NCBI RefSeq assembly: GCF_028767125.1
Contig: NZ_JAKCWP010000010.1
Location: 1-64,000 of the forward strand
Origin: Chelativorans sp. YIM 93263
GTDB lineage: Bacteria; Pseudomonadota; Alphaproteobacteria; Rhizobiales; Rhizobiaceae
Length of the DNA stretch: 64,000 nucleotides
Direction: 5' to 3'
Part shown: positions 10,545-30,592 of the stretch, piece after piece
How positions within the stretch are numbered: position 1 is the first letter of the stretch
Layout: the number at the start of each line of letters is the position of its first letter
Notes under the pieces: model-generated
What the model saw: only the letters and a program-made list of their open reading frames with translations
Databases searched by the model: none
What the model was told of the DNA's origin: nothing
Program-made: the position numbers and the translations under genes

Positions 10545-12460
10545 GCGGCCCTCCCTTTCATCGCGCGTGCACGATCCCACACCTCACAAAGTGCTCGGTA
10601 ACGTTGGGCGATGTCTCGCACGGCCTCCCGGTCGCCGATCTCGCCAGCCAGCCAGCGGCGCGCGGCGTCGGCGAAGATGGTGCGTCCGACGGCAAAGCCC
10701 TTAACGAGATCGAACCCGCCAGCGGCAGCAAAACTTGCCTCCAGCTCGTCGGCTGGCGCATCGAGCCCCAGCACCACAATGCCGCGTGTATAGGGGTCGT
10801 TTCGCGTGATCGCTTCGCAAGCATTGGCCCAAGCCTTCTGCGAGGTCATCGGCTCCAGCTTCCACCAGTCAGGATAGACGCCGATCTCGTAGAAACGCTC
10901 GATGACGGCCGCGGTCGTCCTTTCATCACAGGAGCGGACCGTGGAAGGTATGACTTCCAGAAGCATCTCCAGCCGATTGCGGCGGCTGGCGGCAAATAGC
11001 CGCTTGACCACGTCCTCCTGCCGCGCCTTCATTTCCGCGTCATCATCCGGATGATAGAAGCACAGCACCTTCACCACGTACTCCAGCGGCCACTCGGCCA
11101 GCCCGCCGAAATCCGGTCCGATCTCCGGCTCCAGCTCCAGCGGGCGCGATCCCGGCAGTTCGACCGGCCTTCCGATCCAAAGACCGCTGCCCGCAGCCTG
11201 ATACAGGGCATCGCGGCCGAGCCGCCCGTCGCACAGAATGCCATAGCCATGCCTGTCGCCCGCAACCTGCTTCGCGGCTTCCAAACACAGCACCTTGAAA
11301 TCACCGAGACGCTCCGCCGGCGCCCCAGCCGCTTCGGCCATCTCTTCCAACTGCCTACGGTGGTCGAAGGCGAAGACCCGCATGTCCTGCCAGTCACCCT
11401 TCCGGTTGGTCGACCAGTGCACCTGTTCGAGCACGGTATCCTTGCGGAGCGCGCGGTTCTTTAGGCCGGTGCGGAAGAAATATTGCAGCTCCTCCCAGGA
11501 GGGGTAAGCCGGCGTGCAGCCGTGGCGAGAGACGGCGAAGGCACCGCAGGCATTGGCGTATTTAAGCGTGGTGGGCCAGACCTCCCCGTCGAGCCAGCCC
11601 TTTAGAAGGCCGGCCATGAAACCGTCGCCGGCGCCCAGCACGTTGAAGACCTCGATGGGGAAATGCTCGCCCGCCTCACCTTGATCCAGCGTGCCGGGGA
11701 TCCCGCCAGTGAAGGCCGCAGCACCCATTGGCCCGCGCTTGCAGATGAGCACCGCATCAGTGAGGCGGCGGACAGCGCGCAATGCTTCGATGGTGTCAGT
11801 GGAACCACCGGCGATGTGGAACTCCTCCTCCGTGCCGACGATCAGGTCGAAGAGCGGTAATGTCGTCTGAAGCTTTGCCGTTACGCGCTCGGATTCGATG
11901 AAGCGGCTCTCGCCGGCGCCGTGGCCGGCCAGGCCCCAGAGATTGGGCCGGTAATCTATGTCGAGCGCGGTTTTGGCGCCGCTCTCACGGGCGAGCTTCA
12001 GCGCTTTAAGCACGGCAGCTTCCGTCTGCGGATGGGAGAGGTGTGTGCCGGTGGCGCAAACGGCGCGCGCCTCCGCGACAAAGTCCGGATCGATATCATC
12101 CTCGCTGAGCGCCATGTCGGCGCAGTCTTCGCGATAGAAGATCAGCGGAAACTGCTCCTGATCACGGATGCCGAGAAGGACAAGTGCGGTCAGGCGCTCC
12201 GGATCCGTCTTGACTCCGCGCACGTCCACACCCTCGCGTTGAAGCTCCTCGCGGATGAAGCGGCCCATATGCTCGTCACCCACGCGAGTGATCAGCGCCG
12301 ACTTCAGGCCGAGCCGCGCCGCGCCGGCCGCGATATTTGTGGGGGAGCCGCCGATATATTTGTTGAAGGAGGCCATGTCCTCCAGCCGCCCGCCAACCTG
12401 CGCGCCGTAGAGATCAACCGACGAGCGGCCGATGGTGATGACGTCAAGCTTTTTCGTCAC
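10541..12460 (-). CDS. iolC: 5-dehydro-2-deoxygluconokinase IolC fused to a DUF2090 aldolase-like domain
   Basis: About 639 residues. The N-terminal half is a PfkB kinase (GGSPTNIAAGAARLG near residue 50; NVLGAGDGFMAGLLKG with catalytic Asp near 280). The C-terminal ~310 residues are the DUF2090 domain starting around FAFDHRRQLEEMAE, a TIM-barrel domain usual in rhizobial IolC and proposed to be the phosphate aldolase (IolJ-like) step. GTG 12460 is chosen because GGGAGG lies 6-7 nt upstream; an ATG further up (12496) has no such site. It is the first gene of the operon, ~100 bp after iolR, with a palindromic operator in the gap. Confidence 0.94.
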   Translation of the reverse strand: MTKKLDVITIGRSSVDLYGAQVGGRLEDMASFNKYIGGSPTNIAAGAARLGLKSALITRVGDEHMGRFIREELQREGVDVRGVKTDPERLTALVLLGIRDQEQFPLIFYREDCADMALSEDDIDPDFVAEARAVCATGTHLSHPQTEAAVLKALKLARESGAKTALDIDYRPNLWGLAGHGAGESRFIESERVTAKLQTTLPLFDLIVGTEEEFHIAGGSTDTIEALRAVRRLTDAVLICKRGPMGAAAFTGGIPGTLDQGEAGEHFPIEVFNVLGAGDGFMAGLLKGWLDGEVWPTTLKYANACGAFAVSRHGCTPAYPSWEELQYFFRTGLKNRALRKDTVLEQVHWSTNRKGDWQDMRVFAFDHRRQLEEMAEAAGAPAERLGDFKVLCLEAAKQVAGDRHGYGILCDGRLGRDALYQAAGSGLWIGRPVELPGSRPLELEPEIGPDFGGLAEWPLEYVVKVLCFYHPDDDAEMKARQEDVVKRLFAASRRNRLEMLLEVIPSTVRSCDERTTAAVIERFYEIGVYPDWWKLEPMTSQKAWANACEAITRNDPYTRGIVVLGLDAPADELEASFAAAGGFDLVKGFAVGRTIFADAARRWLAGEIGDREAVRDIAQRYRALCEVWDRARAMKGRAA

Positions 12461-12550
12461 ATCGCGCCTCCCTGCTGTTGCGCGCATTGAGCGCACGTCC
12501 TCCCTCCTTCGGATGGCGGAATCTGGCCGCTATTCGATCCTTAAGAGTTA

Positions 12551-12566
12551 TAGAAGATATATTCTA
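12551..12566 (-). promoter_or_regulatory. Putative IolR operator upstream of iolC
   Basis: TAGAAGATATATTCTA: arms TAGAA/TTCTA are perfectly inverted around six bases (GAA-N6-TTC). It overlaps the iolR stop codon and lies ~90 bp before the iolC GTG in an AT-rich gap. The same architecture recurs at 13467-13482 and, imperfectly, at 19016-19031. An RpiR-type IolR site of the form GGAA-N6-TTCC is remembered for Sinorhizobium. Binding is inferred. Confidence 0.55.
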
Positions 12567-13418
12567 TTTATCGTCGCTCCTCAACAAGGAAATTCCATTT
12601 TCCCGCGCACGCATTTCCGTTCCAACCGCCACAACCAGAGTCACGGCAAGCGAAAGCGTGGCCGAAAGCGAGCGAAAGTCACCGAAATCTGCCTCCGAAA
12701 CGGTTAGAATTTGGGTGGTTACCGGCCTCAGCGGGCTCGCCAGTGAATCCGTGATGCCCACCACGTCGGCGCCTGCATGGTGGGCGGTTTCGGCCAACTT
12801 CACGGTTTCCGGTGTATAGGGCGCAAAGGTGATTGCAATCACGGCATCGTCTGCACGAATGGCATGGCGGCTATCGAGCATGCCCACGCTGTCGTGCAGC
12901 ATGGTGGGAACGTTCATTTTCTCGAATGCATAGGCAAGATAGGAGGCGACGGAGAAAGCCCGGCGCAAGCCGACGATATGGACCATATGCGCCTCGGCGA
13001 GCGCCTTTATGGCCGAGTCCAGCACCTGCGGGTCGATGGTCTTGGCGAGGTTTTCCAGTGACAGCCGTCCCGCCTCGACGAACTCCGCCAGAAGCGCCGA
13101 AGGTCGGCCCGCACCGCTTTCACGCAGCTTTTCCAGCCGGGTCGCATAATCGGGCCAGTTCTGCGCATAAGATTCCCGGAACAGGCGCTGCATCTGCGAA
13201 TAGCCTGAAAACCCGAGCACCTGGCAGAAGCGCATGAAGGCAGACGGCTGTACGCCAGCTCCTTCCGCCATCTCCGCGACGGTCGACACGGCGACGCGGT
13301 CCGGGTTGGTTGCCACGTAATCGGCGCATTGCTTCAGTCGCTTGGGTAAATCGTCGGAGATTTGCAACATCCTGTCGAGAAGTTGCTCGATGGAAGCGGG
13401 GGCGGAACGGGCGTCCAT
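12564..13418 (-). CDS. iolR: RpiR-family transcriptional regulator IolR
   Basis: 284 residues from ATG 13418 (MDARSAPASIEQLLDRM). N-terminal HTH_6 ~1-77 (VSTVAEMAEGAGVQPSAFMRFC); C-terminal SIS domain ~125-260 (HIVGLRRAFSVASYLAY..., GVVGITDS-like), expected to sense a phosphorylated inositol intermediate. Its position directly before iolCDEB is the known rhizobial arrangement. GAA-N6-TTC palindromes flank the gene on both sides, supporting autoregulation. In-frame ATG 13502 is less likely because it falls beyond the operator. Confidence 0.9.
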   Translation of the reverse strand: MDARSAPASIEQLLDRMLQISDDLPKRLKQCADYVATNPDRVAVSTVAEMAEGAGVQPSAFMRFCQVLGFSGYSQMQRLFRESYAQNWPDYATRLEKLRESGAGRPSALLAEFVEAGRLSLENLAKTIDPQVLDSAIKALAEAHMVHIVGLRRAFSVASYLAYAFEKMNVPTMLHDSVGMLDSRHAIRADDAVIAITFAPYTPETVKLAETAHHAGADVVGITDSLASPLRPVTTQILTVSEADFGDFRSLSATLSLAVTLVVAVGTEMRARENGISLLRSDDK

Positions 13419-13466
13419 GCGTGACTTTCTATGCTTGACAGTACACCTGCTCAATCCTAGCGCCTT

Positions 13467-13482
13467 TGGAATAAAAATTCTA
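13467..13482. promoter_or_regulatory. Putative IolR operator in the iolR/dehydrogenase divergent promoter
   Basis: TGGAATAAAAATTCTA: GGAA-N6-TTCT, an imperfect palindrome nearly matching the site before iolC. It sits 49 bp upstream of the iolR ATG (minus) and 42 bp before the dehydrogenase ATG (plus), so one dimer could repress both. Confidence 0.55.
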
Positions 13483-13523
13483 CCATGGTACGAGTCTATC
13501 AAAGCGGGGGATGAGGAGGGCAG

Positions 13524-14642
13524 ATGCGCGAGATTGGCATTGGACTAATCGGCACCGGTTTCATGGGCAAGGCCCACGCGCTTGCCTATCGCACGGCAAA
13601 GGCCGTTCTGGGTGATGTGCCGGCGGCGCGGCTGGAGATCCTCTGCGATACTCCGGCCGACAAGGCCCGGCAAATGGCCGAGCAATTCGACTTTGCCCGG
13701 TCGACGGATAACTGGCGGGAGGTCGTACAGGACCCGCGCGTGGAAATCGTCTCAATCACCACCCCGAACCACATGCACCGAGAGATCGCCCTTGCGGCGA
13801 TCGCCGCGGGCAAGCATGTGCATTGCGAAAAGCCTATGGGCCTGACATTGGCCGAGGCCGAGGAGATGACTGCGGCGGCCAAACGGGCGGGCGTCAAGAC
13901 GATCGTCGGCTACAATTACATCAAGAACCCGGCCTTTCTCCATGCCCGTACGCTGATCCGCGAAGGCGCTATCGGCCGCATCATCCATTTTCGCGGTTGG
14001 GTGGACGAGGATTACCAGGCGGATCCCGACTTGCCCTGGAGCTGGCGCGCGCGACTGGAGGAGGCCGGTCTGGGCGCACTCGGGGACATGGGCTGCCACC
14101 TCGTTTCGATGGCCTACGACCTCATGGGGCCGATCGCCAGTCTGGTCGCGGATATGCAAACCGTCCACGAAACGCGCGCAACGCCGGATGGGACGGATCG
14201 CAAGAAGGTGGAAAACGAGGATACCGCTTCTGCACTCGTGCGTTTTGAAAGCGGCGCGCATGGCTCGCTCTCAACTTCACGGACAGCTTGGGGCCGCAAG
14301 AACCGGCTGGACTGGGAAGTCCATGGAACCAAGGGCATGCTCGTATTCGCCCAAGAGCGCATGAACGAGTTGCACTTGTACCAGAATGAAGGAGACCGGG
14401 CGCAGCAAGGCTTCAAAACGATTTTCACGGGCCCGGATCACCCTCCTTACGGGAACTTCTGCCCGGCGCCGGGCCACCAACTCGGCTTCAACGACCTCAA
14501 GACGCTGGAGGCCGGCGCCTTCCTGCGCTGGGTCGCAGGAGGCGAAAAATCCTCACCTGATTTTTTCGAGGCCCTGGAATACGAAAGGGTTATCCACGCC
14601 ATCGCGGCGGCAGCGCGCGAGGAGCGAAGGGTGGCGGTGTAG
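13524..14642 (+). CDS. Gfo/Idh/MocA family dehydrogenase next to iolR
   Basis: 372-residue NAD(P)-dependent oxidoreductase. Rossmann motif GLIGTGFMGKAHA at residues 8-20, catalytic lysine in HCEKPMG (~98-104) and the D-x-G-x-H pair in GDMGCHLVSMAYDL (~190). ATG 13524 follows GAGGAGGG. Divergent from iolR and sharing an operator, so its substrate is probably an inositol, inosose or related cyclitol. MocA-type or scyllo-inositol dehydrogenases are the closest guesses; the exact substrate cannot be read from sequence. Confidence 0.9.
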   Translation: MREIGIGLIGTGFMGKAHALAYRTAKAVLGDVPAARLEILCDTPADKARQMAEQFDFARSTDNWREVVQDPRVEIVSITTPNHMHREIALAAIAAGKHVHCEKPMGLTLAEAEEMTAAAKRAGVKTIVGYNYIKNPAFLHARTLIREGAIGRIIHFRGWVDEDYQADPDLPWSWRARLEEAGLGALGDMGCHLVSMAYDLMGPIASLVADMQTVHETRATPDGTDRKKVENEDTASALVRFESGAHGSLSTSRTAWGRKNRLDWEVHGTKGMLVFAQERMNELHLYQNEGDRAQQGFKTIFTGPDHPPYGNFCPAPGHQLGFNDLKTLEAGAFLRWVAGGEKSSPDFFEALEYERVIHAIAAAAREERRVAV

Positions 14643-14757
14643 GTCAACCGGCCACCGACAAGCTTGTCGAGCTTACCGGATTGCAAATCACTCTCGATCT
14701 GCAAGAGCCCAGGCAAAGGATCCCCTTACCTTATGAAGGTACTCCCGGCCTCCCAGG

Positions 14758-15762
14758 CTACCCCAGCACCTCAGACACTTTGACCGCCCTGCCCTGTTCG
14801 ATCGACAAATACGCCGCATCGGCCAGCGCCAAGGCCCTGAGGCCGTCCTGCCCCGATGGTGAAGCGGGCTTTCCCTCCGATATAGCGGCGACGAAAGCCG
14901 CCATTTCCGCCGCATAGGCCTCCGTATAGCGCGTCATGAAAAAGTCGTGCAGAGGCGGCTTCGTGTAGCCTGTATTCGTCGCGATCTCTATCGAGACCGG
15001 ACGCTGGTTCTCGGCTGAAATGGCTCCTTTCGATCCGTGCACCTCAATGCGCTGGTCATAGCCGTAGGTGGCGCGGCGGGAATTCGAAATCGTGCAGTGC
15101 TTGCCCGAAGGTGTCGTGAGCACCACCGATGCGCTGTCGTGATCTCCCAGCTTGCCGATCTCCGGATCAACCAGGACAGAAGCCGTGGCGAAAACCGTGT
15201 CCGGCTCCTCGCCCAACAAGAAGCGCGCCATATCGAAATCGTGAATGGTCATGTCCCTCAGAATACCGCCCGACGAGCCGATATACTGTGCCGGCGGCGG
15301 ACCCGGATCGCGGGAGACGATCTGCACCATCTCGACATCGCCGATCCTGCCTTCGTTAATCGCTGCGCGGACGGCGGAAAAATGCGGATCGAAGCGGCGG
15401 TTGAAGCCGACCATAAACGTCGCATCCGTCTCCTCAACGACTCTCAGGCAAGCCTTCACCCTGTCGTAGTCGAGATCGATGGGCTTTTCGCAGAAGATCG
15501 CCTTGCCGGCTCGGGAAAAGCGCTCGATCAGATCAGCGTGGGTGTCGGTGGGCGTGCAGATCACAACGGCATCGATGTCCGCAGCCGCCTCGATCTCCTC
15601 GATGGTGCGCACAGCACAGCCCTGCGCCTCTGCGATCGCGCTGGCGGCATCGGCGACCGCATCGGCGACGGCCGTCAACTGCGCGCCCTTATTGCCGGAG
15701 ATAGCACGGGCATGCACCTTGCCGATGCGCCCGGCACCCAGCAGGCCGAATCGTACTGTCAT
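14758..15762 (-). CDS. idhA: Inositol 2-dehydrogenase (Idh/IolG)
   Basis: 334 residues, typical of myo-inositol 2-dehydrogenase, which oxidises myo-inositol to 2-keto-myo-inositol with NAD. Rossmann GLLGAGRIGKVHAR at the N-terminus, catalytic EKPID, substrate motif GFNRRFDPHF, and the D-x3-H pair in RDMTIHDFDMARF. ATG 15762 has AAGAAGG just upstream; the frame continues to 15939 but those codons show no family match. Downstream of the CUT2 transporter genes on the same strand, separated by 227 bp, so it may have its own promoter. Confidence 0.92.
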   Translation of the reverse strand: MTVRFGLLGAGRIGKVHARAISGNKGAQLTAVADAVADAASAIAEAQGCAVRTIEEIEAAADIDAVVICTPTDTHADLIERFSRAGKAIFCEKPIDLDYDRVKACLRVVEETDATFMVGFNRRFDPHFSAVRAAINEGRIGDVEMVQIVSRDPGPPPAQYIGSSGGILRDMTIHDFDMARFLLGEEPDTVFATASVLVDPEIGKLGDHDSASVVLTTPSGKHCTISNSRRATYGYDQRIEVHGSKGAISAENQRPVSIEIATNTGYTKPPLHDFFMTRYTEAYAAEMAAFVAAISEGKPASPSGQDGLRALALADAAYLSIEQGRAVKVSEVLG

Positions 15763-15989
15763 CCTTCTTCTTTCCTTTTCGTTCGTGTTTTCCGGGTGCG
15801 GCTCACCTTGTTCGGGATAGGCACCCGGGGCCGGTATGACAAGGGCGCGGCAGCCTTCTGCAATAACCTGGGCGGTAACTGCCCACCCGAGCTCCTGGGT
15901 TCCGCCAACAACGGCGGCGCTAATGCGCGAATTTGGCATGGCTCAAGTATTCCCTCGTAGCCGGGGCTGTGCCGTGAAACAGGTCAGCT

Positions 15990-16775
15990 CTAAATATAGC
16001 TCGCGTTCTCGTGCACACCGGCTTTCACCCCGGTGATCAAAGAGACGATTTCGTTGCCGTCGGTCTTGTCGGCCTCCAGCATTCCGGCGATGCGCCCGCG
16101 CCGGAACACCCAGATCTTGTCCACGAGATTGAAGACCTGGCGCAGATTGTGGCTAACGAGAATAAGGGGGATCCCTTGCTTCTTGAGACCACGGATAATG
16201 TTCTCCACCTGCGTGGTTTCCTGAACGCCGAGTGCCGCAGTCGGCTCGTCCATGATGATAAGCTTGGAGGCGAAGCTCGCCGCGCGCGAGATGGCGACGC
16301 ATTGGCGCTGGCCCCCGGACATATTGGCGATCGGGTTATGCAAGTTTGGTATCTTAATACCGGTGCGTTCCAGCGCCTCCATGGACCGACGATACATCTT
16401 TCTCTCATTGAGGAAACTGAACGGGCCAAGATTGAAGTAGACCTCCTCACGGCCGAGAAAGATGTTGGACGGAACGTCCAGATCGTCCGCCAGCGCGAGG
16501 TTCTGGAAGACTGCTTCGATGCCGACATCGCGCGCATCCAGCGGGCTGCTGAACGTCACCTCCTTTCCCTCGAAGAAGATCTTGCCCGCCGTGGGCTGTT
16601 CAACGCCGGTGATCTGACGCACGAAAGTGGATTTCCCCGCACCATTGTCGCCGACAATGGCCACATGCTCGCCTTCCCGCAGCGTGAAATCCGCATCCTC
16701 GAGCGCATGAACGCCCCCATAATGCTTGGTCAGATTTTCCGTCTGCAGGATGATCTTGGAATTGCTATCGGCCAC
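15990..16775 (-). CDS. CUT2 sugar ABC transporter ATPase (inositol importer)
   Basis: 261-residue single-domain ATPase of the FrcA/IatA type. Walker A GDNGAGKST, signature MSGGQRQ, Walker B LIIMDEPTAALG, switch LVSHN. GTG 16775 is chosen because GGGAGG sits 6 nt upstream and the protein then begins VADSNSKIILQTENLTKHYGG; earlier in-frame codons overlap the permease in another frame and are not protein-like. It powers import of the ligand of the upstream binding protein. Inositol is inferred from the neighbouring idh and iol genes. Confidence 0.93.
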   Translation of the reverse strand: MADSNSKIILQTENLTKHYGGVHALEDADFTLREGEHVAIVGDNGAGKSTFVRQITGVEQPTAGKIFFEGKEVTFSSPLDARDVGIEAVFQNLALADDLDVPSNIFLGREEVYFNLGPFSFLNERKMYRRSMEALERTGIKIPNLHNPIANMSGGQRQCVAISRAASFASKLIIMDEPTAALGVQETTQVENIIRGLKKQGIPLILVSHNLRQVFNLVDKIWVFRRGRIAGMLEADKTDGNEIVSLITGVKAGVHENASYI

Positions 16776-16798
16776 TTTATCCTCCCACTTGGCAGCGA

Positions 16799-17836
16799 CT
16801 AGGTGCTCGTCCGGAATCGCTGGCGGTAAACGTCGGCAACCACGGCCGCGATGATGATCGCGCCCATGATCATCTCCTGGTAGTAGGCGCTGAGCTTCAA
16901 GAAGGTGAAGCCGGAGATGATAACGCCGAAGATGGCGGCACCGATCACCGTGCCCACCACCGAGCCGCGTCCGCCCGTCAGCGATACGCCGCCAATGACG
17001 GCCATGGCGATGGCTTGCAGCTCGTACATCATACCCATCCCGGCCTGAGCGGTCAGCCCGCGGGCGGCGACGACAATGCCGGCGAGAGAGGCAAGAAGAC
17101 CGGCGATGGAATACACAAGGACCAAGTGGCGCTCGACACTGATGCCGGAAACCCTCGCCGCATTCTGGTTCGAACCGATGGCATAGGTGTGCTTTCCATA
17201 GACAGTATATTTCAGAGCGACATGGAAAAGCAGCGCGACGGCCAGAAAGATGACGACGGGCATCATGCCTTGTCCGATGGCTGCATAGCTGTCGGTCGGG
17301 AAGGACACCGGTTGTCCGCGCGTGTACCACTTAGCGGCCCCGCGCGCTGTGACCATCATGCCGAGGGTGGCGATGAAAGGCGGAATTCGGGTGTAGGCGA
17401 TCAGCGCGCCGTTTATGAATCCCGCCCCCAGCCCGCAAGCCAGCCCGGCAAGGATCGGTATAATGACTGGAAGGTCAGTCAGATTTGGATAGACCGCGCG
17501 TGGATAGGTACCGACCTGGGCGAGGCTCATGGAGACCATCGCTGTCAAGCCAACTATCGAGCCCGAGGAAAGGTCGATCCCGCCGGTGATAATCACCTGG
17601 GTCACGCCAACGGCAATGATTCCCACCACCGCAACCTGAAGGATCATGATACTCAGGCGCTGGGTGTTGAACAGGAAACTCTGACCCTGAAAAAGCCAGC
17701 CGAGAAGCTCGAAAATGATTGCGACCCCAAGGAGCCCGATAAGAGCATTCAACTCATGGGAACGCGGTTTCTTTCCTTCCGCCACATCTGGCGTGGCCCC
17801 GGCTTCCGCCTGATCTGTCGCCATTCTCTCCGCCAT
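16799..17836 (-). CDS. CUT2 sugar ABC transporter permease (inositol importer)
   Basis: 345 residues with a ~35-residue cytoplasmic N-terminus and about 9-10 membrane helices. Family motifs VTQVIITGGIDLSSGSIVG and AIAMAVIGGVSLTGGRGSV are typical of RbsC/FrcC/IatP permeases. GGGAGG precedes ATG 17836. It lies between the binding protein and the ATPase, with two strong hairpins in the gap to the binding protein gene. Confidence 0.94.
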   Translation of the reverse strand: MAERMATDQAEAGATPDVAEGKKPRSHELNALIGLLGVAIIFELLGWLFQGQSFLFNTQRLSIMILQVAVVGIIAVGVTQVIITGGIDLSSGSIVGLTAMVSMSLAQVGTYPRAVYPNLTDLPVIIPILAGLACGLGAGFINGALIAYTRIPPFIATLGMMVTARGAAKWYTRGQPVSFPTDSYAAIGQGMMPVVIFLAVALLFHVALKYTVYGKHTYAIGSNQNAARVSGISVERHLVLVYSIAGLLASLAGIVVAARGLTAQAGMGMMYELQAIAMAVIGGVSLTGGRGSVVGTVIGAAIFGVIISGFTFLKLSAYYQEMIMGAIIIAAVVADVYRQRFRTST

Positions 17837-17856
17837 GCCGACCTCCCTCTTGGGCT

Positions 17857-17908
17857 GGCCGGCCTTACAGCCGGCCGCCTGATAGCCGGCGGAATCCTCC
17901 CGCCGGCT
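17857..17908 (-). other. Two GC hairpins between binding-protein and permease genes
   Basis: GGCCGGC (17857-17863) pairs with GCCGGCC (17870-17876) around CTTACA, and AGCCGGCGG (17884-17892) pairs with CCGCCGGCT (17900-17908). No T-run follows, so these look like mRNA 3'-end stabilisers or partial attenuators that keep the binding-protein message more abundant than the permease message, rather than full terminators. Confidence 0.55.
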
Positions 17909-17916
17909 GTCCCACC

Positions 17917-18864
17917 TCAGTTCTTGCTCGTGAATTCATCCATGTTGTCGGGTGTGACGAGTTGGAAGGGAATGTAGACTTTCTGATCTTCGATCGCTTC
18001 GCCGCGTGCCAGCTTCAGCGCTGTATCGATGGCACCATGCCCCTGTCCTGCCGCATCCTGGAATACGGTGACGTCGAGATCACCTTCCGCCATGGCGGCC
18101 AGCGCGTCCTGGGTCGCGTCGACGCCGCCGACGAGCACTTCGTCCATGGACATTCCCGCCGCCTTCATTGACTGGATCGCGCCAATGGCCATCTCATCAT
18201 TGTTGGAAATCACTGCATCGAACTCGACGCCAGCTGAAAGCCAGTTGGACATGAGGTCGGCGGCTTCCGTGCGCTGCCAGTTGGCAGTCTGCTCCTCGAC
18301 GATCTCCATAAACGAGCACTCTTCAGTGGCGATCACGTCATGAATATCCTGCGTGCGCATGCGCGCCGCCTGGTTCGACAGCTCGCCCATCATGACGACG
18401 ATCTTGGCGCCATCGTCCTTGCCCTGCTCCCGTAGAAGACGGCAAATCTCCTGAGTTTCCAGCGTTCCGGACTCTCGCTCGTCCGAAGCCACAAAGGCCT
18501 GGTTTTCGGGCAGATCCTCCACGTTGACTGGCTCGCGGTTTACAAAGACCAACGGCACGCCGGCATCAGCCGCTGCCTTGGTCATGGCAACGGTAGCGTC
18601 GGTATCGACCGGATTGACGACGATGGCGTCCACACCGGATGCGATGAAGTTCTGAATCTGGTTGAGCTGCTTGCCGACGTCGTTCTGCGCATCTTCGATC
18701 TGCACATCCACGTCGTCCATTTCGTTTGCATAATCCTCCATACCGTTACGCAAAACAGTCAGGAAGTTGTCGTCGAACAAGGCCATGGACACGCCGATGG
18801 TCTCGGCCATGGCCGACGTCGTCATCAGCGCCGAAACCGCAGCGCTCATTATTAGCTTCTTCAT
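17917..18864 (-). CDS. Periplasmic sugar-binding protein of the inositol-type CUT2 importer
   Basis: 315 residues from ATG 18864 (GGAGGAG upstream). Signal peptide MKKLIMSAAVSALMTTSAMA, then a mature type I periplasmic binding fold beginning ETIGVSMALFDDNFLTVLRN. Typical features include VDAIVVNPVDTDA, VFVNREP and ISNNDEMAIGAIQSMKAAG. Resembles the IbpA / MocB class. First gene of the importer operon; its promoter holds candidate IolR sites. Confidence 0.92.
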   Translation of the reverse strand: MKKLIMSAAVSALMTTSAMAETIGVSMALFDDNFLTVLRNGMEDYANEMDDVDVQIEDAQNDVGKQLNQIQNFIASGVDAIVVNPVDTDATVAMTKAAADAGVPLVFVNREPVNVEDLPENQAFVASDERESGTLETQEICRLLREQGKDDGAKIVVMMGELSNQAARMRTQDIHDVIATEECSFMEIVEEQTANWQRTEAADLMSNWLSAGVEFDAVISNNDEMAIGAIQSMKAAGMSMDEVLVGGVDATQDALAAMAEGDLDVTVFQDAAGQGHGAIDTALKLARGEAIEDQKVYIPFQLVTPDNMDEFTSKN

Positions 18865-19015
18865 TTGATGCTCCTCCGCAGATGGGTGACCGGCGGCACC
18901 CGTTTTCAGCCGGATTCCCGTACCGGGAACTTGCGAGCCCCCCAGCGACGCTCCATAAATGACGACGGCACCTTCTCCTCCAAAATGGAACGCCATCACC
19001 GCGAGATGCTCAATA

Positions 19016-19065
19016 TAAAATATTTATTCCATTTTTTGACCTAACGTCAAGGCGAATTCCATTTT
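19016..19065 (-). promoter_or_regulatory. Composite control region of the inositol importer
   Basis: On the minus strand the decamer AAAATGGAAT occurs twice, 30 bp apart (plus coordinates 19026-19035 and 19056-19065). The proximal copy begins an imperfect IolR-like site (GGAA-N6-TTTT, 19017-19030). Between them lies a perfect inverted repeat TTGAC-CTAAC-GTCAA (19036-19050) of a different type. The region is 150-200 bp upstream of the binding-protein ATG. Confidence 0.45.
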
Positions 19066-19084
19066 GTGGCCGCTTGCGCTGCGG

Positions 19085-19915
19085 TTAAGCGAGTTGTCGC
19101 ATACCTTCTGTGATGAATGTCATGCTGTCGGCTATCGTCGAGGCGAGATCGGGCAGACGGTGCACCGCCTCGGAGAACGGTTCGAATGATAGCGGTCCGT
19201 TAAAGCCACCCCTGCGCAAGGCTGCGATCTGGACGATATTGTCGAGCCGGTCCCCCCGGCCGACCAGCACTCTGTCGCCATCGCACATCTGATTTACGCC
19301 GATGGCACTGTCCGTCACTCCGGAAGCGTGTAGGAGCCCCGTCTGCGCTGGAAAAATTGACTCTTCACCGGACAAGAAATGATGGAACGTATCGTGGACG
19401 ATACGGAAGACCGCACTGGCGCCGAGCCCCTCGATTGCCTCGATGGCTTCGGATTTGTAGCGCAGTGAAGACGTGTCAAAGCCAAGCGGTTCCACTAGGC
19501 CGGCAATCCCAGCTTCGGCCAGGATCGGCCGCAGTTCCTTCAAGGCGATACGCAAGTTTGCCTGACGCTCGCCGTTCGCGCTGCCTGTGCCGTCGTTGAC
19601 GGGCACCAGGACCAGCGCCTCCGCCCCGCACGCTTTTGCATAGGCGGCAAGCGCCCGCGCTTCGTTCTCCCGCGCGTCATTCCATTGGTTGAAGCGCTGC
19701 AGCGCGTTGATGGAGACGATACGCAAGCCCCGCGAGGCGGCGGCCTCGGCAATCGCCTCCGGATCGGTCCCGTCGGCAATGGCATTGCCCTGAATGTCGT
19801 TGCGGATTTCAACGCCGGTCGCCCCGACTGCCTTAGCAAGGTCGAAGAAATCGGAGATGGAATGGTTGGGCGCGCACATGTGGTTGAGTGCAAAAGCCGG
19901 CGTACCTGCGGTCAT
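19085..19915 (-). CDS. IolI/MocC-type TIM-barrel isomerase
   Basis: 276 residues from ATG 19915, with GGGGAGG upstream. Xylose-isomerase-like TIM barrel. Metal-ligand positions of IolI are all present: Glu in GLVEPLGF, Asp/His in IVHDTFHHF, His in GLLHASG and Glu in LSFEPFSE. IolI interconverts 2-keto-myo-inositol and 1-keto-D-chiro-inositol; the rhizopine protein MocC is in the same superfamily. It lies between the importer and the LacI gene on the same strand. Inosose isomerase is the best guess. Confidence 0.8.
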   Translation of the reverse strand: MTAGTPAFALNHMCAPNHSISDFFDLAKAVGATGVEIRNDIQGNAIADGTDPEAIAEAAASRGLRIVSINALQRFNQWNDARENEARALAAYAKACGAEALVLVPVNDGTGSANGERQANLRIALKELRPILAEAGIAGLVEPLGFDTSSLRYKSEAIEAIEGLGASAVFRIVHDTFHHFLSGEESIFPAQTGLLHASGVTDSAIGVNQMCDGDRVLVGRGDRLDNIVQIAALRRGGFNGPLSFEPFSEAVHRLPDLASTIADSMTFITEGMRQLA

Positions 19916-20051
19916 GAGAGGCCTCCCCATAGACTTTGATTTTAATCGAAGCATGGCGGGGACCCGCAGGGGCGTCAACGCGAACGTGCGACAAAGCCTA
20001 TCAAGTATGACAGAATTCGTCTCTCAAGAGACTTGTTTCTATCATTCCACA

Positions 20052-21098
20052 TCACAGACTTTCCGGCACATGAATTGTAACCGGCAAGAAAAGCTGTCCC
20101 GACGTCTCGGCCTGCCCGGAACGAACGGAATTGACCATGTGCTCGAGCAATGAGCGACACATGGATTGCAGCGGCGTCGCGAGTATACCCGTAATCAGAT
20201 GCTCCTGCAGGGCAGCAGTCGAATCCGGCGTCAGCTCGTTGACGATAACCGAGGGTCGCATGGCGGATCCGTCTCTCTCAGACATCTCCTCGCGTAGTGC
20301 CATGATCGCACCCTCCATCCCGCCACCGGCTACATAGAAGCCGGCAATGTCGGGGTAGCGATCGAGAAGGTTCAGCGTTGCCTCGTAGGTAAGCCGGCGC
20401 GTATCCAGATTGACCATTGTCTCAAGGATTTCGAACTCCGGCGCATATTCGCGGAAGAAACTGCGGAAACCGGTCTCGCGCAACTCATGGCCGTGCCAGC
20501 GATGGCCGCCGACGAAGAGCGCCACTTTCCCGGGCCGGCGCGCCGTGTGCGCGATGAGCCATGCCGCCGTGCGCCCCACCTTGATATTGTTCAAGCCAAC
20601 ATAGCTTTCCCGCACCCCTTGGGCGAAATCCGACAGGAGCGCAAAGACCGGTTTGCCGTTGACCTTAAGCGCCTCCACGGCCTGCGTGACGCTGTGATGG
20701 TCGACGCTAACGGCTGCAATGGCCTGGGTGCGAGTGGCGAGCGGCTCCAGCTGTGCCACGATTGCGGAGGGGGCCTGCCCCTCCGCAAATGCAATGTGCG
20801 GACGCACCCGCACGTCTCGCACGCCCACCGCGGCCTCCGTCAGCGCCCGCGCCAGCCCCTGATAGAAGGGCTGTGCCTCCTTTTGCAGGAGAAAGCCGAA
20901 GTCCATCACCGGCAGCTCGGCCGTAATGCGCTGGTGAATAAGCGCCGCCGCATGATAGCCGACCGCTTGGGCGGCTTCGTATACGCGCCGCGCCGTCTCC
21001 TCACGCACCCGATGCCGACCGTTCAGCACCCGATCCACGGTGGCAACACTTACTCCGGCCTCGTGGGCCACATCGGCAATTGTCGGGCGCTGGCCCAT
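20052..21098 (-). CDS. LacI-family regulator of the moc-like genes
   Basis: 348 residues. N-terminal LacI HTH (TIADVAHEAGVSVATVDRVLNG, hinge QAVGYHAAAL) and a periplasmic-binding-protein-like effector domain with GLNNIKVGRTAAWLI and FYVAGGGMEG. Divergent from the desaturase gene, with a perfect palindrome 15-30 bp before its own start. It likely controls the mocDEF-like operon, itself, and perhaps the IolI-like gene downstream. The effector is unknown; an O-methyl-inositol or inosose is plausible. Confidence 0.88.
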   Translation of the reverse strand: MGQRPTIADVAHEAGVSVATVDRVLNGRHRVREETARRVYEAAQAVGYHAAALIHQRITAELPVMDFGFLLQKEAQPFYQGLARALTEAAVGVRDVRVRPHIAFAEGQAPSAIVAQLEPLATRTQAIAAVSVDHHSVTQAVEALKVNGKPVFALLSDFAQGVRESYVGLNNIKVGRTAAWLIAHTARRPGKVALFVGGHRWHGHELRETGFRSFFREYAPEFEILETMVNLDTRRLTYEATLNLLDRYPDIAGFYVAGGGMEGAIMALREEMSERDGSAMRPSVIVNELTPDSTAALQEHLITGILATPLQSMCRSLLEHMVNSVRSGQAETSGQLFLPVTIHVPESL

Positions 21099-21112
21099 GC
21101 AGGGTCCCTCTC

Positions 21113-21128
21113 TGATAGTAATCTATCA
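21113..21128. promoter_or_regulatory. Palindromic LacI-type operator
   Basis: TGATAGTAATCTATCA is a perfect inverted repeat (TGATAG/CTATCA, 4-bp centre) in the divergent gap between the LacI gene (start 21098) and the desaturase gene (start 21236). A further TGATAG half site lies at 21147-21152. The flank is AT-rich and promoter-like. Confidence 0.6.
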
Positions 21129-21235
21129 TGAAATAAAATCACATTCTGATAGGAAATGATATAAAAGATTGCATACTTCTTGAGGTGTCTCTTCCCCGCG
21201 CATAGCATGCTGGGCGACTTGGAGGAGGTGTTGAT

Positions 21236-22312
21236 ATGGCCAAACGCGATTACAGCCTTATCGGACCGAACGCCCACCGTGCAGTCGAAACTGGCCTCGC
21301 CTCGGCGGAATGGTATCATACGGACGTCTCACGCAAGGAGATGAAGGCGCTGATGAGGCGCAGCGATGGTCCAGCCATCCGCGACACGGTTATCTGGCTC
21401 GGCTCGATGATCGTACTGGCCGGTACGGCCGTCTGGCTGTGGCCGTCGCTTTGGTCTGCCCCCTTCTTCCTCGCCTACGGCGTACTCTACGGTTCGGCCG
21501 GCGACTCGCGCTGGCACGAATGCGGCCACGGCACTGCCTTCAAGACACGCTGGATGAACGATGCGGTCTACCAGATCGCATCGTTCTTCATGATGCGCAA
21601 TCCCGTCACCTGGCGCTGGAGCCACGCGCGGCATCACACCGACACGATCATCGTCGGGCGCGATCCGGAGATCGCCGTCATGCGCCCGCCGGATCTGCTG
21701 CGCCTGACACTCAACTTTTTCGGCATTCTCGATGTCTGGCACGCCATGGTCGACATGGTGCGCAATGCGGCCGGCGTCGTCAGTGCGGAGGAGAAGACTT
21801 TCATCCCCGAGCAGGAGCAATCGAAGGCGATCTTCGTGGCCCGCATCTGGGTGACCATCTATGTCGCCACGGGGGCGACCGCCGTCTACACCGGTTCTAT
21901 CCTGCCGTTCCTCATCATCGGCGGTCCGCGCCTTTACGGCGCCTGGCATCATGTGATGACGGGGCTTCTGCAACACGGCGGGCTTGCCGAGGACGTGACC
22001 GATCATCGGCTCAACAGCCGCACGGTCTACATGAACCCGGTCAGCCGCTTCATCTACTGGAACATGAACTATCACGTGGAGCACCACATGTTCCCGATGG
22101 TGCCCTATCACGCGCTGCCCAGGCTGCATGAAATGATCAGGCATGACCTGCCGGCGCCGAGTATGTCGATCCTCGATGGTTACCGGGAGATGCTGCCTGC
22201 CTTCCTGCGCCAGCTTCGCTACGAGGATTACTTCATCAAACGTGAACTGCCCCCGACAGCAAGGCCCTACCGGGCCGAGTTCCACGATGTGGCGCCTGAG
22301 GCGGCCGAATAG
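21236..22312 (+). CDS. MocD-like membrane di-iron oxygenase (fatty-acid-desaturase superfamily)
   Basis: 358 residues, with GGAGGAGGT before ATG. The three histidine boxes of the FA-desaturase/hydroxylase superfamily are HECGH (94-98), HARHH (130-134) and HVEHH (~280). Hydrophobic segments fall at ~50-85 and ~200-225. Followed at once by a Rieske ferredoxin and a ferredoxin reductase, i.e. a complete three-part oxygenase. In rhizobia mocD-mocE-mocF is this trio and is linked to demethylation of 3-O-methyl-scyllo-inosamine. Here the inositol genes around it make an O-methyl cyclitol the likely substrate; that is inference. Confidence 0.85.
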   Translation: MAKRDYSLIGPNAHRAVETGLASAEWYHTDVSRKEMKALMRRSDGPAIRDTVIWLGSMIVLAGTAVWLWPSLWSAPFFLAYGVLYGSAGDSRWHECGHGTAFKTRWMNDAVYQIASFFMMRNPVTWRWSHARHHTDTIIVGRDPEIAVMRPPDLLRLTLNFFGILDVWHAMVDMVRNAAGVVSAEEKTFIPEQEQSKAIFVARIWVTIYVATGATAVYTGSILPFLIIGGPRLYGAWHHVMTGLLQHGGLAEDVTDHRLNSRTVYMNPVSRFIYWNMNYHVEHHMFPMVPYHALPRLHEMIRHDLPAPSMSILDGYREMLPAFLRQLRYEDYFIKRELPPTARPYRAEFHDVAPEAAE

Positions 22313-22338
22313 AAACAAAAACCAAGGGGAGGCAAGAC

Positions 22339-22653
22339 ATGTCCCAATGGGTGGATGCATGCGCCGTCGACGATGTGGAGGAGGAGGATCTCATCCGCTT
22401 TGACCATGACGGCAAGGTCTTTGCAGTCTATCGCAGCCCGAATGACGAGTTCTTCGCGACCGATGGCATCTGCACGCACGAGCATGCGTTTCTCGCCGAC
22501 GGGCTGGTGATGGACTACATCATCGAATGTCCCAAGCATAACGGCCGCTTCGACTACCGCACCGGCGAGGCCCAGGGCGCGCCCGTCTGCGTCAACCTGA
22601 AGACCTATCCGGTCAAAGTCGAGGACGACCGCGTCTTCATCGACGTGGCGTGA
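22339..22653 (+). CDS. MocE-like Rieske [2Fe-2S] ferredoxin
   Basis: 104 residues. Rieske ligands C45-x-H47 (CTHEH) and C64-x2-H67 (CPKHNGRFD) are intact. AGGGGAGG precedes ATG 22339, 26 bp after the desaturase stop. It would carry electrons from the following reductase to the di-iron oxygenase. Soluble, cytoplasmic. Confidence 0.93.
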   Translation: MSQWVDACAVDDVEEEDLIRFDHDGKVFAVYRSPNDEFFATDGICTHEHAFLADGLVMDYIIECPKHNGRFDYRTGEAQGAPVCVNLKTYPVKVEDDRVFIDVA

Positions 22654-23849
22654 GCGCCATGGGCGATATCCTCATCATCGGCGCCGGCGAATGCGGAGTG
22701 CGCGCTGCCTTCGCCCTGCGCGAGACCGGCCACGAGGGCGGCATCCGGCTCATCGGCGAGGAGCCGCATCTGCCCTATGAGCGCCCGCCCCTTTCAAAGA
22801 CGGCTTCGACAACTCCGAAGCTCATCGCAGAAGAGGCCCGCTACGGTGAGGCGGACATCGAGCTCATGCGTGGCAGCCGCGTCGAAAGCATCGACCGTGC
22901 TGGCAAGCGCGTGCGGCTGTCGACGGGCGAAACCTTTTCCTACGACAAGCTTCTGATCGCCACCGGCGCCCGCGCGCGCCGTCCCCTCGGCATGGAGGCC
23001 GCATTCACTCTGCGCAGTCTGGACGACGCGCGAGCCATACTCGGCGCGGTCCGGCCAGGCGTCAGGCTTACGATCATTGGCGGCGGCTTCATCGGGCTGG
23101 AGCTTGCCGCCACCGCTCGCAAGTTGAGAGTCGGGGTCACCGTGGTGGAGGCGGCAGACCGGTTGATGGCGCGCATCGTGCCGGCGGAGATCGCCGAAAC
23201 GGTCGCTGAGCGGCATCGGGCCGAGGGTGTCGAATTGATCCTCGGCGCAGGTGTGACCGCGGTGCGGCCCGACGGTCTCACGCTCGCCGACGGGCGCGAG
23301 ATCGAGGCTCACATGGTGGTGGCCGGTGTCGGCGCGGAGCCGGAGACGCAGCTTGCGGCAGAAGCCGGGCTCGAGGTGGCCAACGGCATCGTTGTCGATG
23401 GCCGGCTAGCCACGAGTGACCCGCACATCTTCGCCGCCGGCGACTGCTGCTCTTTTCCTTACAATGGAGAGCGCGTGAGGCTTGAAAGCTGGCGCTGCGC
23501 CCAGGACCAAGGGACGCACGCCGCGCATACGATGCTGGGCAGAAAGGACCGTTACACCCGCGTGCCGTGGTTCTGGTCCGATCAGTACGATCTCACGCTG
23601 CAGGTGGCCGGCATTCCCGATCCGTCGCTCGGTCATGTGCGCCGCACTCTCGACGACGCCTTCATCCTGTTCCAGTTCGGAGCGGACGGACGTCTCGTCT
23701 CGGCCAGCGGCGTCGGCATCGGCAATGCCGTGGCCAAGAACATCCGCCTTGCCGAAATGATGATGGAAAAGGGCATCAGGCCGGATCCCGCGCAGCTCGC
23801 CGACCCGGCAGTCAATCTGAAAAAGCTTTTGAAGGGGATACCGGCATGA
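22650..23849 (+). CDS. MocF-like FAD-dependent ferredoxin reductase
   Basis: 399 residues, with an FAD-binding motif (IIGAGECGVRAAFALRE), an NAD-binding motif (IIGGGFIGLELAATARK), a second FAD motif (HIFAAGDCC) and the C-terminal reductase domain (VPWFWSDQYDLTLQVAG). This is the rubredoxin/ferredoxin reductase family. GTG 22650 overlaps the Rieske stop (GTGA); ATG 22659 is an alternative start. Electron donor for the MocE-like protein. Confidence 0.93.
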   Translation: MSAMGDILIIGAGECGVRAAFALRETGHEGGIRLIGEEPHLPYERPPLSKTASTTPKLIAEEARYGEADIELMRGSRVESIDRAGKRVRLSTGETFSYDKLLIATGARARRPLGMEAAFTLRSLDDARAILGAVRPGVRLTIIGGGFIGLELAATARKLRVGVTVVEAADRLMARIVPAEIAETVAERHRAEGVELILGAGVTAVRPDGLTLADGREIEAHMVVAGVGAEPETQLAAEAGLEVANGIVVDGRLATSDPHIFAAGDCCSFPYNGERVRLESWRCAQDQGTHAAHTMLGRKDRYTRVPWFWSDQYDLTLQVAGIPDPSLGHVRRTLDDAFILFQFGADGRLVSASGVGIGNAVAKNIRLAEMMMEKGIRPDPAQLADPAVNLKKLLKGIPA

Positions 23850-24652
23850 AGCGGCCGAACCGGATGACAGTTGCGGATCTGCGCGCGCTGAAGGGCAAGC
23901 GCCAGCTTGTCATGTTGCGTGTGGAAACGCTTGAGGAAGCCGAGGCCGCCGAGCGTGCCCGCATCGATATGGTCTCCGTGCCGCCAGCGTTGATCCTCGA
24001 CTCCGCTTTCCGCGACGCCGCTCCCACCGTCTTTGCCATTCCCGGCGACAACTTCTTCGAGATCGGCACGCCAGACGATTTCATCCACTGGGCATTCCCG
24101 CTCTACAAGGCGGGCGCGGACGCCATCTATTGCTCGGCCGGCACAGGCACCATCCGCCGGCTTGCCGGAGAAGGCATCCCCGTGTGCGGCCACGTCGGCC
24201 TCATCCCCTCCAAGGCCACATGGACGGGCGGCTTCAAGGCGGTCGGCAAGACGCTAGAGACTGCGCAGCTCGTCTGGCGCCAAGTCAAAGCGCTGGAGGA
24301 AGGCGGCGCCTTTGCGGCGGAAATCGAGGTGGTGCCCGAGGCCATCGCCACGGAAATCGCAAGCCGCACGTCGCTTTTCATGATCTCCATGGGCGCGGGT
24401 GCGGGCTGCGATGCGCAATACCTATTCTCCGGCGACGTGCTCGGCGCCAATACCGGGCACGTGCCGCGACACGCCAAAACCTACCGCAACTTCGCGGCCG
24501 AATACGCCCGGCTGCAGGAGGAGCGCGTCAACGCCTACCGCGAATTCGCCGAAGACGTACGCTCCGGCGGCTATCCGCAGGCCGGACACAAGGTAGAGGC
24601 GGAAGCTGAAGTGCTCGCCAGTTTCCGCGATTGGTGCCGCCACAACACTTGA
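23846..24652 (+). CDS. Divergent PanB (ketopantoate hydroxymethyltransferase) paralogue
   Basis: 268 residues, PanB-like along the full length: IPVCGHVGLIPSKATWTGGF, EVVPEAIATEIA, MGAGAGCDAQYLFSGDVLG, TGHVPRHAK. The family glutamate base is kept (E161), but the Mg-binding Asp of VGDS is Val (V45) and the Glu of KIEGG is Ser (S97) by eye alignment. ATG 23846 overlaps the reductase stop (ATGA), so it is translationally coupled to the oxygenase operon. PanB uses methylene-tetrahydrofolate, so one idea is C1 or aldol chemistry linked to demethylation. It is unlikely to be the pantothenate enzyme. Confidence 0.8.
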   Translation: MKRPNRMTVADLRALKGKRQLVMLRVETLEEAEAAERARIDMVSVPPALILDSAFRDAAPTVFAIPGDNFFEIGTPDDFIHWAFPLYKAGADAIYCSAGTGTIRRLAGEGIPVCGHVGLIPSKATWTGGFKAVGKTLETAQLVWRQVKALEEGGAFAAEIEVVPEAIATEIASRTSLFMISMGAGAGCDAQYLFSGDVLGANTGHVPRHAKTYRNFAAEYARLQEERVNAYREFAEDVRSGGYPQAGHKVEAEAEVLASFRDWCRHNT

Positions 24653-29126: not shown

Positions 29127-29173
29127 GTTGTCTCCCTGGTTTCCGGGTGGATTCACCCCTCTTTGGCGTAACT

Positions 29174-29225
29174 AACACTTAGCTTCCGCTGCGCTCCAGC
29201 TAAGATGTTGGAACCGCTTTTTCTC
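29174..29225 (+). repeat. Hairpin repeat, copy 1
   Basis: AACACTTAGCT pairs with AGCTAAGATGTT (one bulged A) around a 13-nt loop, followed by GCTTTTTCTC. It shares its arms, loop core (GCTGCGCTC) and T-rich tail with the opposite-strand hairpin at 29313-29362, so the two look like inverted copies of one small element. Confidence 0.5.
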
Positions 29226-29312
29226 CCACAAGAGAACAGGTGGGTGCCCCAGCACCGCCAACACTGGCGACCAGCGGTGAGAGCGATGCAAGCGATATCT
29301 CTCCGCTAGGAA

Positions 29313-30582: not shown

Positions 30583-30592
30583 TTTTCTCTCC

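What the first reader, a model, noticed from the sequence alone, without database searches (positions are those of the whole stretch)
13524..24652. Combined inositol (iol) and MocDEF-like oxygenase island, candidate O-methyl-cyclitol pathway
A full desaturase-like di-iron oxygenase, Rieske ferredoxin and reductase in the order mocD-mocE-mocF sits beside an inositol importer, idh, an IolI/MocC-type isomerase and the iolRCDEB operon. Rhizopine catabolism uses mocDEF to demethylate 3-O-methyl-scyllo-inosamine. Here the same logic could feed O-methylated inositols into the standard pathway. The added PanB paralogue is not part of the classical moc set as I know it.
Basis: partly seen in the sequence, partly recalled or inferred. 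Interest (0 to 1): 0.75.

Follow-up and report, generated by a model that had tools for sequence, protein, structure and literature searches.

The report
O-demethylase cluster with a PanB-like partner
A soil-type bacterium carries genes that look set to strip methyl groups off methylated inositols, and the odd extra gene beside them is a conserved, altered vitamin-pathway enzyme that may catch the formaldehyde this releases.

Summary
The cluster is real: iol operon, inositol-type importer and a LacI gene, divergent from mocD-mocE-mocF-'panB' (4-base overlaps at the last two junctions). The desaturase falls in the MocD clade that holds the MocD of a rhizopine-type locus, outside lipid-type desaturases; the importer's binding protein is 69-70% identical to those of three rhizopine-type loci. 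MocR, the deacetylase and the aminotransferase of such loci have no match in the window, so an O-methylated inositol fits better than a rhizopine; no substrate was tested. The PanB paralogue (PanBL) is no oddity: 5 of 5 rhizopine-type loci examined carry mocDEF-PanBL-purU, and among 101 genomes of the family MocD (26) and PanBL (27) co-occur in 24. PanBL has the PanB fold but has lost PanB's metal-ligand positions in nearly all of 129 sequences; this genome lacks true PanB and PanC. PanBL also occurs near four other oxygenase families. Best reading: PanBL handles the formaldehyde-level carbon from oxidative demethylation, perhaps loading it onto tetrahydrofolate. Gene order is strong; the chemistry is inferred, and purU is near PanBL in only 1 of 37 wider-sampled loci.

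The parts
21236..22312 (+). MocD-like membrane di-iron oxygenase (FA_desaturase family, three His boxes)
22339..22653 (+). MocE-family Rieske ferredoxin
   Evidence: TIGR02377 172.6 bits over cut-off 136.15
22650..23849 (+). MocF-like FAD-dependent ferredoxin reductase, overlaps mocE by 4 bases
23846..24652 (+). PanBL: PanB-family paralogue without the metal-ligand positions; overlaps mocF by 4 bases
20052..21098 (-). LacI-family regulator, divergent from mocD
   Evidence: same place as the fixV homologues of PMC3538637; that homology itself not tested here
21113..21128 (.). TGATAG-TAAT-CTATCA inverted repeat between LacI and mocD, possible operator
   Evidence: read directly; function inferred
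19085..19978 (-). xylose-isomerase-like TIM barrel, perhaps an inosose isomerase/epimerase
   Evidence: PF01261 82 bits; 2q02/4hgx; activity inferred
17917..18999 (-). sugar-binding protein, 69-70% identical to the MocB-position protein of three rhizopine-type loci
16799..17836 (-). ABC permease (sugar type)
15990..16790 (-). ABC ATPase, single nucleotide-binding domain (exact start not fixed)
14758..15939 (-). iolG / idh, inositol 2-dehydrogenase (true start probably inside the ORF)
   Evidence: TIGR04380 421 bits over cut-off 355
13524..14642 (+). second Gfo/Idh/MocA oxidoreductase, substrate unknown
12564..13502 (-). RpiR-family regulator, iolR by position
10541..12496 (-). iolC, fused kinase/aldolase
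   Evidence: NF047869 728 bits
8721..10580 (-). iolD
   Evidence: TIGR04377 921 bits
7822..8811 (-). iolE (true start probably inside the ORF)
   Evidence: TIGR04379 355 bits
6657..7466 (-). iolB
   Evidence: TIGR04378 340 bits

Best explanation
An O-methylated inositol is imported by the MocB-like ABC system. MocD, fed electrons from NAD(P)H by MocF and MocE, hydroxylates the O-methyl group; the hemiacetal falls apart to inositol and formaldehyde. Inositol enters the iol route through IolG (the TIM-barrel protein may interconvert inososes). PanBL, a PanB-fold protein that has lost the alpha-keto-acid metal site, handles the formaldehyde-level one-carbon unit, most likely by speeding its union with tetrahydrofolate to methylene-THF; FolD and PurU (purU here elsewhere in the genome, in a part of the relatives next in the operon) would oxidise it to formate and free the THF. 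Shown: gene content, order, conservation, MocD phylogeny, PanBL residue losses, absence of true PanB and PanC matches in this genome. Inferred: substrate, demethylation chemistry, PanBL reaction. Within this, the demethylase part is about 0.7, a one-carbon role of PanBL about 0.65, the exact PanBL reaction about 0.35.
For: MocD clade membership. 5 of 5 rhizopine-type loci carry mocDEF-PanBL-purU. Family sample: MocD in 26 and PanBL in 27 of 101 genomes, both in 24, Fisher 8e-18; 23 of 30 MocD places have PanBL within 6 kb. purU within 6 kb of PanBL in 22 of 80 close loci and 5 of 11 plasmid loci, folD in 4 of those 11; purU in 0 and folD in 1 of 20 canonical PanB loci. Nitratireductor L004 has purU in the PanBL slot. 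PanBL also near FA_hydroxylase, PhyH, TauD and Rieske oxygenases; canonical PanB control 0 of 20 with any oxygenase sought. Residues. Fold. No canonical PanB or PanC in the genome. purU/folD beside N-demethylating oxidases is on record (PMC3891541, PMC3691474; passages).
Against: No substrate, activity or expression data. In the 37 class/phylum loci purU lies near PanBL in only 1 and folD in none, and folD in none of the 80 close loci, so the folate genes are a partial, not a general, companion. Some mocDEF-like loci lack PanBL: Burkholderia L029, L030, L031, Nitratireductor L004 and 7 of 30 family places, one of which has a PanBL 13.6 kb off. 12 of 37 class/phylum PanBL loci show none of the oxygenases sought (L155 and L160 lie near contig ends), among them a distant subgroup (L164, L165, L167, L169, L170). 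L246 shows no known partner. In the window purU is not in the operon (relatives only on other contigs). L050 has PanBL and purU without any of the oxygenases sought; an FMO-like flavoprotein is 5.7 kb off. PanBL may have lost so much of the PanB site that it is not an enzyme. Deleting canonical panB (with ltaE) did not change formaldehyde-THF growth in E. coli (PMC7073904).
Confidence: 0.55

Rival explanations
1. PanBL is a carboligase: it uses methylene-THF or formaldehyde to hydroxymethylate a product of the cyclitol pathway, like PanB but with a non-keto-acid acceptor and no metal.
For: PanB fold and the residues aligning with E. coli-type H136 and E181 kept; PanB is a hydroxymethyltransferase.
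Against: PanBL occurs near oxygenases of five families with different partner genes, which makes a common acceptor less likely than a common released carbon; purU in the same slot in L004 points to one-carbon disposal.
Confidence: 0.2
2. The locus degrades a true rhizopine (scyllo-inosamine or its 3-O-methyl form).
For: MocDEF-PanBL and a MocB-like binding protein as in rhizopine-type loci.
Against: MocR, deacetylase and aminotransferase of L027 have no tblastn match in the window at E 1e-5; its two Gfo proteins match window Gfo/Idh genes only at 24-34% identity. LacI stands where MocR does.
Confidence: 0.08
3. MocDEF does not demethylate here but hydroxylates or desaturates another substrate (lipid or other polyol), and neighbourhood with iol genes reflects shared regulation only.
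For: The Pfam family is named for fatty acid desaturases; no assay of a MocD enzyme was seen in the passages read.
Against: Clade position, iolG or iol genes in many relatives, one-carbon genes in part of the operons.
Confidence: 0.12
4. The panB-like gene is simply the genome's pantothenate enzyme.
For: It is the only PF02548 hit in the genome.
Against: No PanC match; metal-ligand positions lost; separated from canonical PanB by a 100/100 branch.
Confidence: 0.02

Closest known systems
Rhizopine catabolism (moc) loci of Rhizobium/Sinorhizobium
   Same: mocDEF, a MocB-like binding protein and, as seen here, PanBL behind mocDEF
   Different: window has a LacI regulator, iolG and a complete iol operon; no match to MocR, deacetylase or aminotransferase; purU not in the window
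FixV/Msi119/mocDEF clusters of rhizobia (PMC3538637)
   Same: LacI gene divergent from mocDEF, TIM-barrel gene behind it
   Different: its main text has no 'panB' or 'hydroxymethyltransferase' (purU not searched there); the window adds importer, idh and iol operon
Ketopantoate hydroxymethyltransferase PanB
   Same: fold (TM 0.73-0.75 to 3vav_H and 1m3u_A), residues aligning with E. coli-type H136 and E181
   Different: D45, D84, K112, E114 positions replaced in nearly all of 129 PanBL; no PanC here
purU-mabO-folD and glyA-soxBDAG-purU demethylation operons
   Same: folate one-carbon genes next to a demethylating enzyme
   Different: those oxidases are reported to yield methylene-THF themselves; MocD is an oxygenase with no folate site that I know of (recalled), so a separate capture step would be needed
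Formaldehyde-activating enzyme Fae (methanopterin)
   Same: proposed analogous reaction only
   Different: different cofactor; no homology tested; PMC7073904 (2020, passages) names no THF enzyme of this kind and speculates that one might exist

Membership tests
MocD-type oxygenase system (mocDEF) | MocD inside the MocD clade, apart from lipid desaturases | tested here: met
   long branches among the outgroups; of two own-genome desaturases one was left out and one is an 11% fragment
MocD-type oxygenase system (mocDEF) | three His boxes, MocE Rieske protein, MocF reductase in order | tested here: met
MocD-type oxygenase system (mocDEF) | O-demethylation of a methyl-cyclitol | not testable with these tools
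   needs enzyme or growth assay
Rhizopine catabolic locus | MocR regulator, deacetylase and aminotransferase of L027 | tested here: not met
   unmasked tblastn of L027 proteins on the window
Rhizopine catabolic locus | the two Gfo/Idh oxidoreductases of L027 | tested here: inconclusive
   only 24-34% identity to window Gfo/Idh proteins; the superfamily is broad
Rhizopine catabolic locus | MocB-type binding protein | tested here: met
   69-70% identity to the MocB-position proteins of L027, L229, L231; the sequence of strain L5-30 itself was not available
PanB | PanB fold | tested here: met
   model mean pLDDT 84; Foldseek top 28 rows are PanB chains
PanB | metal-ligand positions D45, D84, E114 (role recalled) | tested here: not met
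   canonical 25 of 25 keep all; PanBL keep D45 in 2 and D84 in 1 of 129 and E114 in 0, the only row with E there being the excluded L166; window has P47, G67, S97
PanB | pathway partner PanC | tested here: not met
   no PF02569 match in the genome
myo-inositol (iol) operon | iolG, iolB, iolC, iolD, iolE | tested here: met
   all over NCBIfam cut-offs
THF-dependent formaldehyde capture | catalysed formaldehyde + THF to methylene-THF | not testable with these tools
   hypothesis from gene order and residue loss

The most novel reading that the evidence does not exclude
PanBL is a folate counterpart of the formaldehyde-activating enzyme: a PanB paralogue that lost its keto-acid metal site and now catalyses formaldehyde + THF to methylene-THF, plugged in behind unrelated oxidative demethylases (MocD, FA_hydroxylase, PhyH, TauD, Rieske oxygenase) in Alphaproteobacteria, including small low-GC genomes, and an overlooked part of the rhizopine operon.
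Probability: 0.3. Interest if true: 0.85.

Novelty: new variant of a known kind. Interest (0 to 1): 0.62.

Why it matters
Bacteria that strip methyl groups oxidatively make formaldehyde and must trap it. Uncatalysed union with THF is too slow to support much growth, and the 2020 study that measured this names no enzyme for it (PMC7073904). PanBL is a concrete candidate found in many genera, with a simple test. It would also complete the rhizopine demethylation operon, suggest that many '3-methyl-2-oxobutanoate hydroxymethyltransferase' labels in rhizobia are wrong, and give an entry to the use of pinitol or ononitol by rhizosphere bacteria.

Tried and rejected
PanBL as pantothenate enzyme: rejected. 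Lipid desaturase: rejected. The 20 loci (L007-L026) found through the NCBIfam model NF052284 were only 3.8-3.9 kb long and showed no mocDEF inside; the MocR search on plasmids served better. My first gene caller mis-called genes in high-GC loci and was replaced. In the residue count one row (L166) was that genome's canonical PanB taken by mistake; it was dropped, 130 to 129; it stands in the tree under a wrong label. A 'mid' group of 9 PanB relatives (L176-183, L185) was first put among the controls, then set apart: it keeps D45 and K112 but not D84 and E114, and 4 of 9 lie within 6 kb of a PhyH/TauD-type hit. A literature search for pinitol, catabolism, inositol dehydrogenase and demethylation found no paper with all four; a wider one listed 15 of 36 papers, none opened; mocDEF with hydroxymethyltransferase and others found none. 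In the listings (20 of 35 papers shown), 98 and 99 no paper holds PanB or purU together with moc terms; the main texts of PMC10107442 and PMC6668481 hold neither panB nor purU. The library lacks most subscription papers, and Bahar 1998 was seen only as a citation.

Limits: the 80 genome-contig loci are the closest of 498 confirmed and mostly Mesorhizobium, so 79 of 80 with MocD is not 80 independent cases; the same loci make up most of the 129 PanBL of the residue count. The alignment around position 45 is next to a deletion in PanBL and is less sure than the rest. The oxygenase queries PhyH, TauD and Rieske were taken from PanBL loci, which flatters the comparison (25 of 37 against 0 of 20); with MocD and FA_hydroxylase alone it is 20 of 37 against 0 of 20, Fisher 2e-5. 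Counted by genome family I first used 15 control families; they are 14, giving 9 of 13 against 0 of 14, Fisher 1.5e-4.
Full report
What is there. On the minus strand run iolC-iolD-iolE-iolB and, above them, iolG, a three-gene ABC importer, a TIM-barrel gene and a LacI gene; on the plus strand, divergent from LacI, run mocD, mocE, mocF and a PanB-family gene. iolB, C, D, E and G pass their curated NCBIfam cut-offs. mocE and mocF overlap by four bases, as do mocF and the PanB-family gene, so these form one operon by structure. A TGATAG-TAAT-CTATCA repeat lies between LacI and mocD (21113-21128).

MocD. It carries the three His boxes of membrane di-iron oxygenases; 52 of 52 MocD-type rows checked keep them. 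In a 57-row tree the window protein pairs with Chelativorans xinjiangense (90% identity) and falls in a 41-row clade (100/98) that also holds the MocD of a rhizopine-type locus, R. leguminosarum A1 pRLa11 (L027), in one 23-row subclade (97/97); the lipid-type desaturases fall outside. Several outer branches are long. Of two own-genome desaturases one was left out and the other filled only 11% of the columns.

Rhizopine-type loci. L027 has a MocR-type regulator, binding protein, Gfo oxidoreductases, deacetylase and a DegT aminotransferase beside mocDEF. A MocR search found 17 plasmid records whose best place has 60% identity or more; I examined five loci (L027, L229-L232). All five have mocDEF followed by PanBL and purU; folD sequence follows in three. 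So the PanB paralogue and purU stand behind mocDEF in these operons. Calling them rhizopine loci rests on their gene set and on recalled knowledge of the moc genes. The window's binding protein is 69-70% identical to those of L027, L229 and L231. L027's MocR, deacetylase and aminotransferase have no match in the window at E 1e-5; its Gfo proteins match window Gfo/Idh genes at only 24-34%, and its iolE-like protein matches window IolE at 42%. An O-methylated inositol without an amino group is therefore the better guess. Among solved structures the binding protein is nearest 4yo7, with 4irx lower; I recall both as inositol complexes.

PanBL is a distinct family. Against profile A2 the class sample shows two groups: full-length matches of 227-452 bits, and matches of 150 bits and less. 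In the family sample two further places score 216 and, as a fragment, 191 bits. A tree of 93 rows puts 58 PanBL on one side of a 100/100 branch, with 25 canonical PanB, 9 intermediate proteins and one mislabelled row on the other. By E. coli-type numbering, canonical PanB keep D45, D84, K112, E114, H136 and E181 in 25 of 25 (one has T for S at 46); PanBL keep D45 in 2, D84 in 1 and K112 in 0 of 129, but H136 in 129 and E181 in 128; the only row with E at 114 was the mislabelled one. That D45, D84 and E114 bind the metal and E181 is the base is recalled, not from a call. The AlphaFold model (mean pLDDT 84, two low loops at 121-129 and 202-212) matches PanB structures best. The genome, 99.99% complete, has no other PF02548 match and no PanC match.

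Neighbourhoods. In 80 close genome loci PanBL has MocD within 6 kb in 79, MocE in 74, MocF in 16, purU in 22, folD in none. Many of the Mesorhizobium loci carry MocD-MocE-PanBL with ABC genes and no MocF or iol genes, so the module is not tied to inositol operons. The fairer test is 101 genomes of the same family (100 genera): MocD in 26, PanBL in 27, both in 24 (Fisher 8e-18); 23 of 30 MocD places have PanBL within 6 kb and 23 of 36 PanBL places have MocD. Of the 13 PanBL places without MocD I looked at 11: two have FA_hydroxylase (L240, L247), five a PhyH confirmed by Pfam (L241, L242, L244, L245 at about 5 kb with ABC genes between; L249 adjacent), one a weak PhyH-like hit (L243), one sits in an iol operon with MocD 13.6 kb off (L248), one has MocE (L194), one shows nothing (L246); G1041:C96 and G1043:C517 were not fetched.

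Wider samples. In 37 loci from the class and phylum samples (22 loci covering the 23 non-own PanBL places, and 15 of the 25 places), 18 have MocD, 3 FA_hydroxylase, 3 Fe/2OG oxygenases and 4 Rieske oxygenase hits, 25 any of these; MocE 17, MocF 8, purU 1, folD 0. The control, 20 canonical PanB loci scanned with the same queries, gave 0 of 20 oxygenases, 0 purU, 1 folD and 9 PanC. In the phylum sample 19 of 398 genomes have PanBL, all of the window's class; two betaproteobacteria (L050, L100) came from the named collection.

Other oxygenases. FA_hydroxylase (PF04116) is found by Pfam in Bradyrhizobium L036/L037, Sinorhizobium sp. RAC02 L038, L240 and L247; PhyH in L163, L171, L172 and the five above; TauD in L172; a Rieske ring-hydroxylating oxygenase in L166. 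L038 and L240 are telling: MocE, PanBL, IolG, MocF and purU (with folD in L038) around FA_hydroxylase instead of MocD. Small low-GC genomes (L159, L161, L162, L168, L173) keep a MocD-like protein and PanBL within 6 kb. Against this, 12 of the 37 loci show none of these oxygenases; three of the 12 (L156, L193, L194) have MocE, L156 and L193 with TIM-barrel neighbours; L155 and L160 are near contig ends.

Mechanism. Oxidative O-demethylation by a hydroxylase releases formaldehyde. Where purU or folD flank demethylating oxidases (purU-mabO-folD, PMC3891541; glyA-soxBDAG-purU, PMC3691474; passages) the oxidase itself is said to yield methylene-THF. An oxygenase of the MocD, FA_hydroxylase or PhyH kind has no folate site that I know of (recalled), yet folD, and purU behind it, need methylene-THF. 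PanBL, from a family whose normal job moves a formaldehyde-level carbon from THF, fits that gap. He et al. [quoted passage not shown] they considered canonical PanB as a possible promiscuous catalyst and saw no change when panB and ltaE were deleted (PMC7073904, passages). Canonical PanB is also suspected of a folate-cleaving side reaction (PMC4814558, abstract and passages). PanBL as a dedicated catalyst is my inference; carboligation to another acceptor is the main rival. That purU and folD are rare beside PanBL in the wider sample weakens the folate part but not the tie to oxygenases.

Verdict.

Noticed in passing
window 15990-16790 (-): The importer ATPase matches only the first half of two-domain sugar ATPase models, a single-domain ATPase in a sugar-type importer.
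   Followed up: no
window 13524-14642 (+): A second Gfo/Idh/MocA oxidoreductase between iolR and idh scores 337 bits to levoglucosan dehydrogenase (cut-off 650); a relative (46-47%) is next to the importer in L034 and L118.
   Followed up: partly
G000 (whole genome): No PF02548 match other than PanBL and no PanC match: the organism probably needs external pantothenate or uses another route.
   Followed up: partly
L176-L183, L185: Intermediate PanB relatives that keep D45/K112 but lost D84/E114; 4 of 9 lie within 6 kb of a PhyH/TauD-type hit. A second, separate PanB offshoot tied to oxygenases?
   Followed up: partly
L159, L162: In L159 PanBL and a MocD-like protein sit beside DUF1800 and DUF1501 genes; L162 has the same DUF1800 neighbour.
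   Followed up: no
L050: An uncultured betaproteobacterium has PanBL divergent from purU with none of the oxygenases sought within 6 kb; an FMO-like flavoprotein lies 5.7 kb away.
   Followed up: partly
window 28104-31714: Aldose-1-epimerase-like, Gfo/Idh-like and sugar-isomerase-like genes follow, a further sugar or cyclitol locus on the same contig (read from the translations, no family search).
   Followed up: no
Pseudomonas syringae (PMC5132102): A paper reports mocDEF beside a second xylose-isomerase-like gene in woody-host strains, function unclear (passages); whether PanBL is there was not tested.
   Followed up: no
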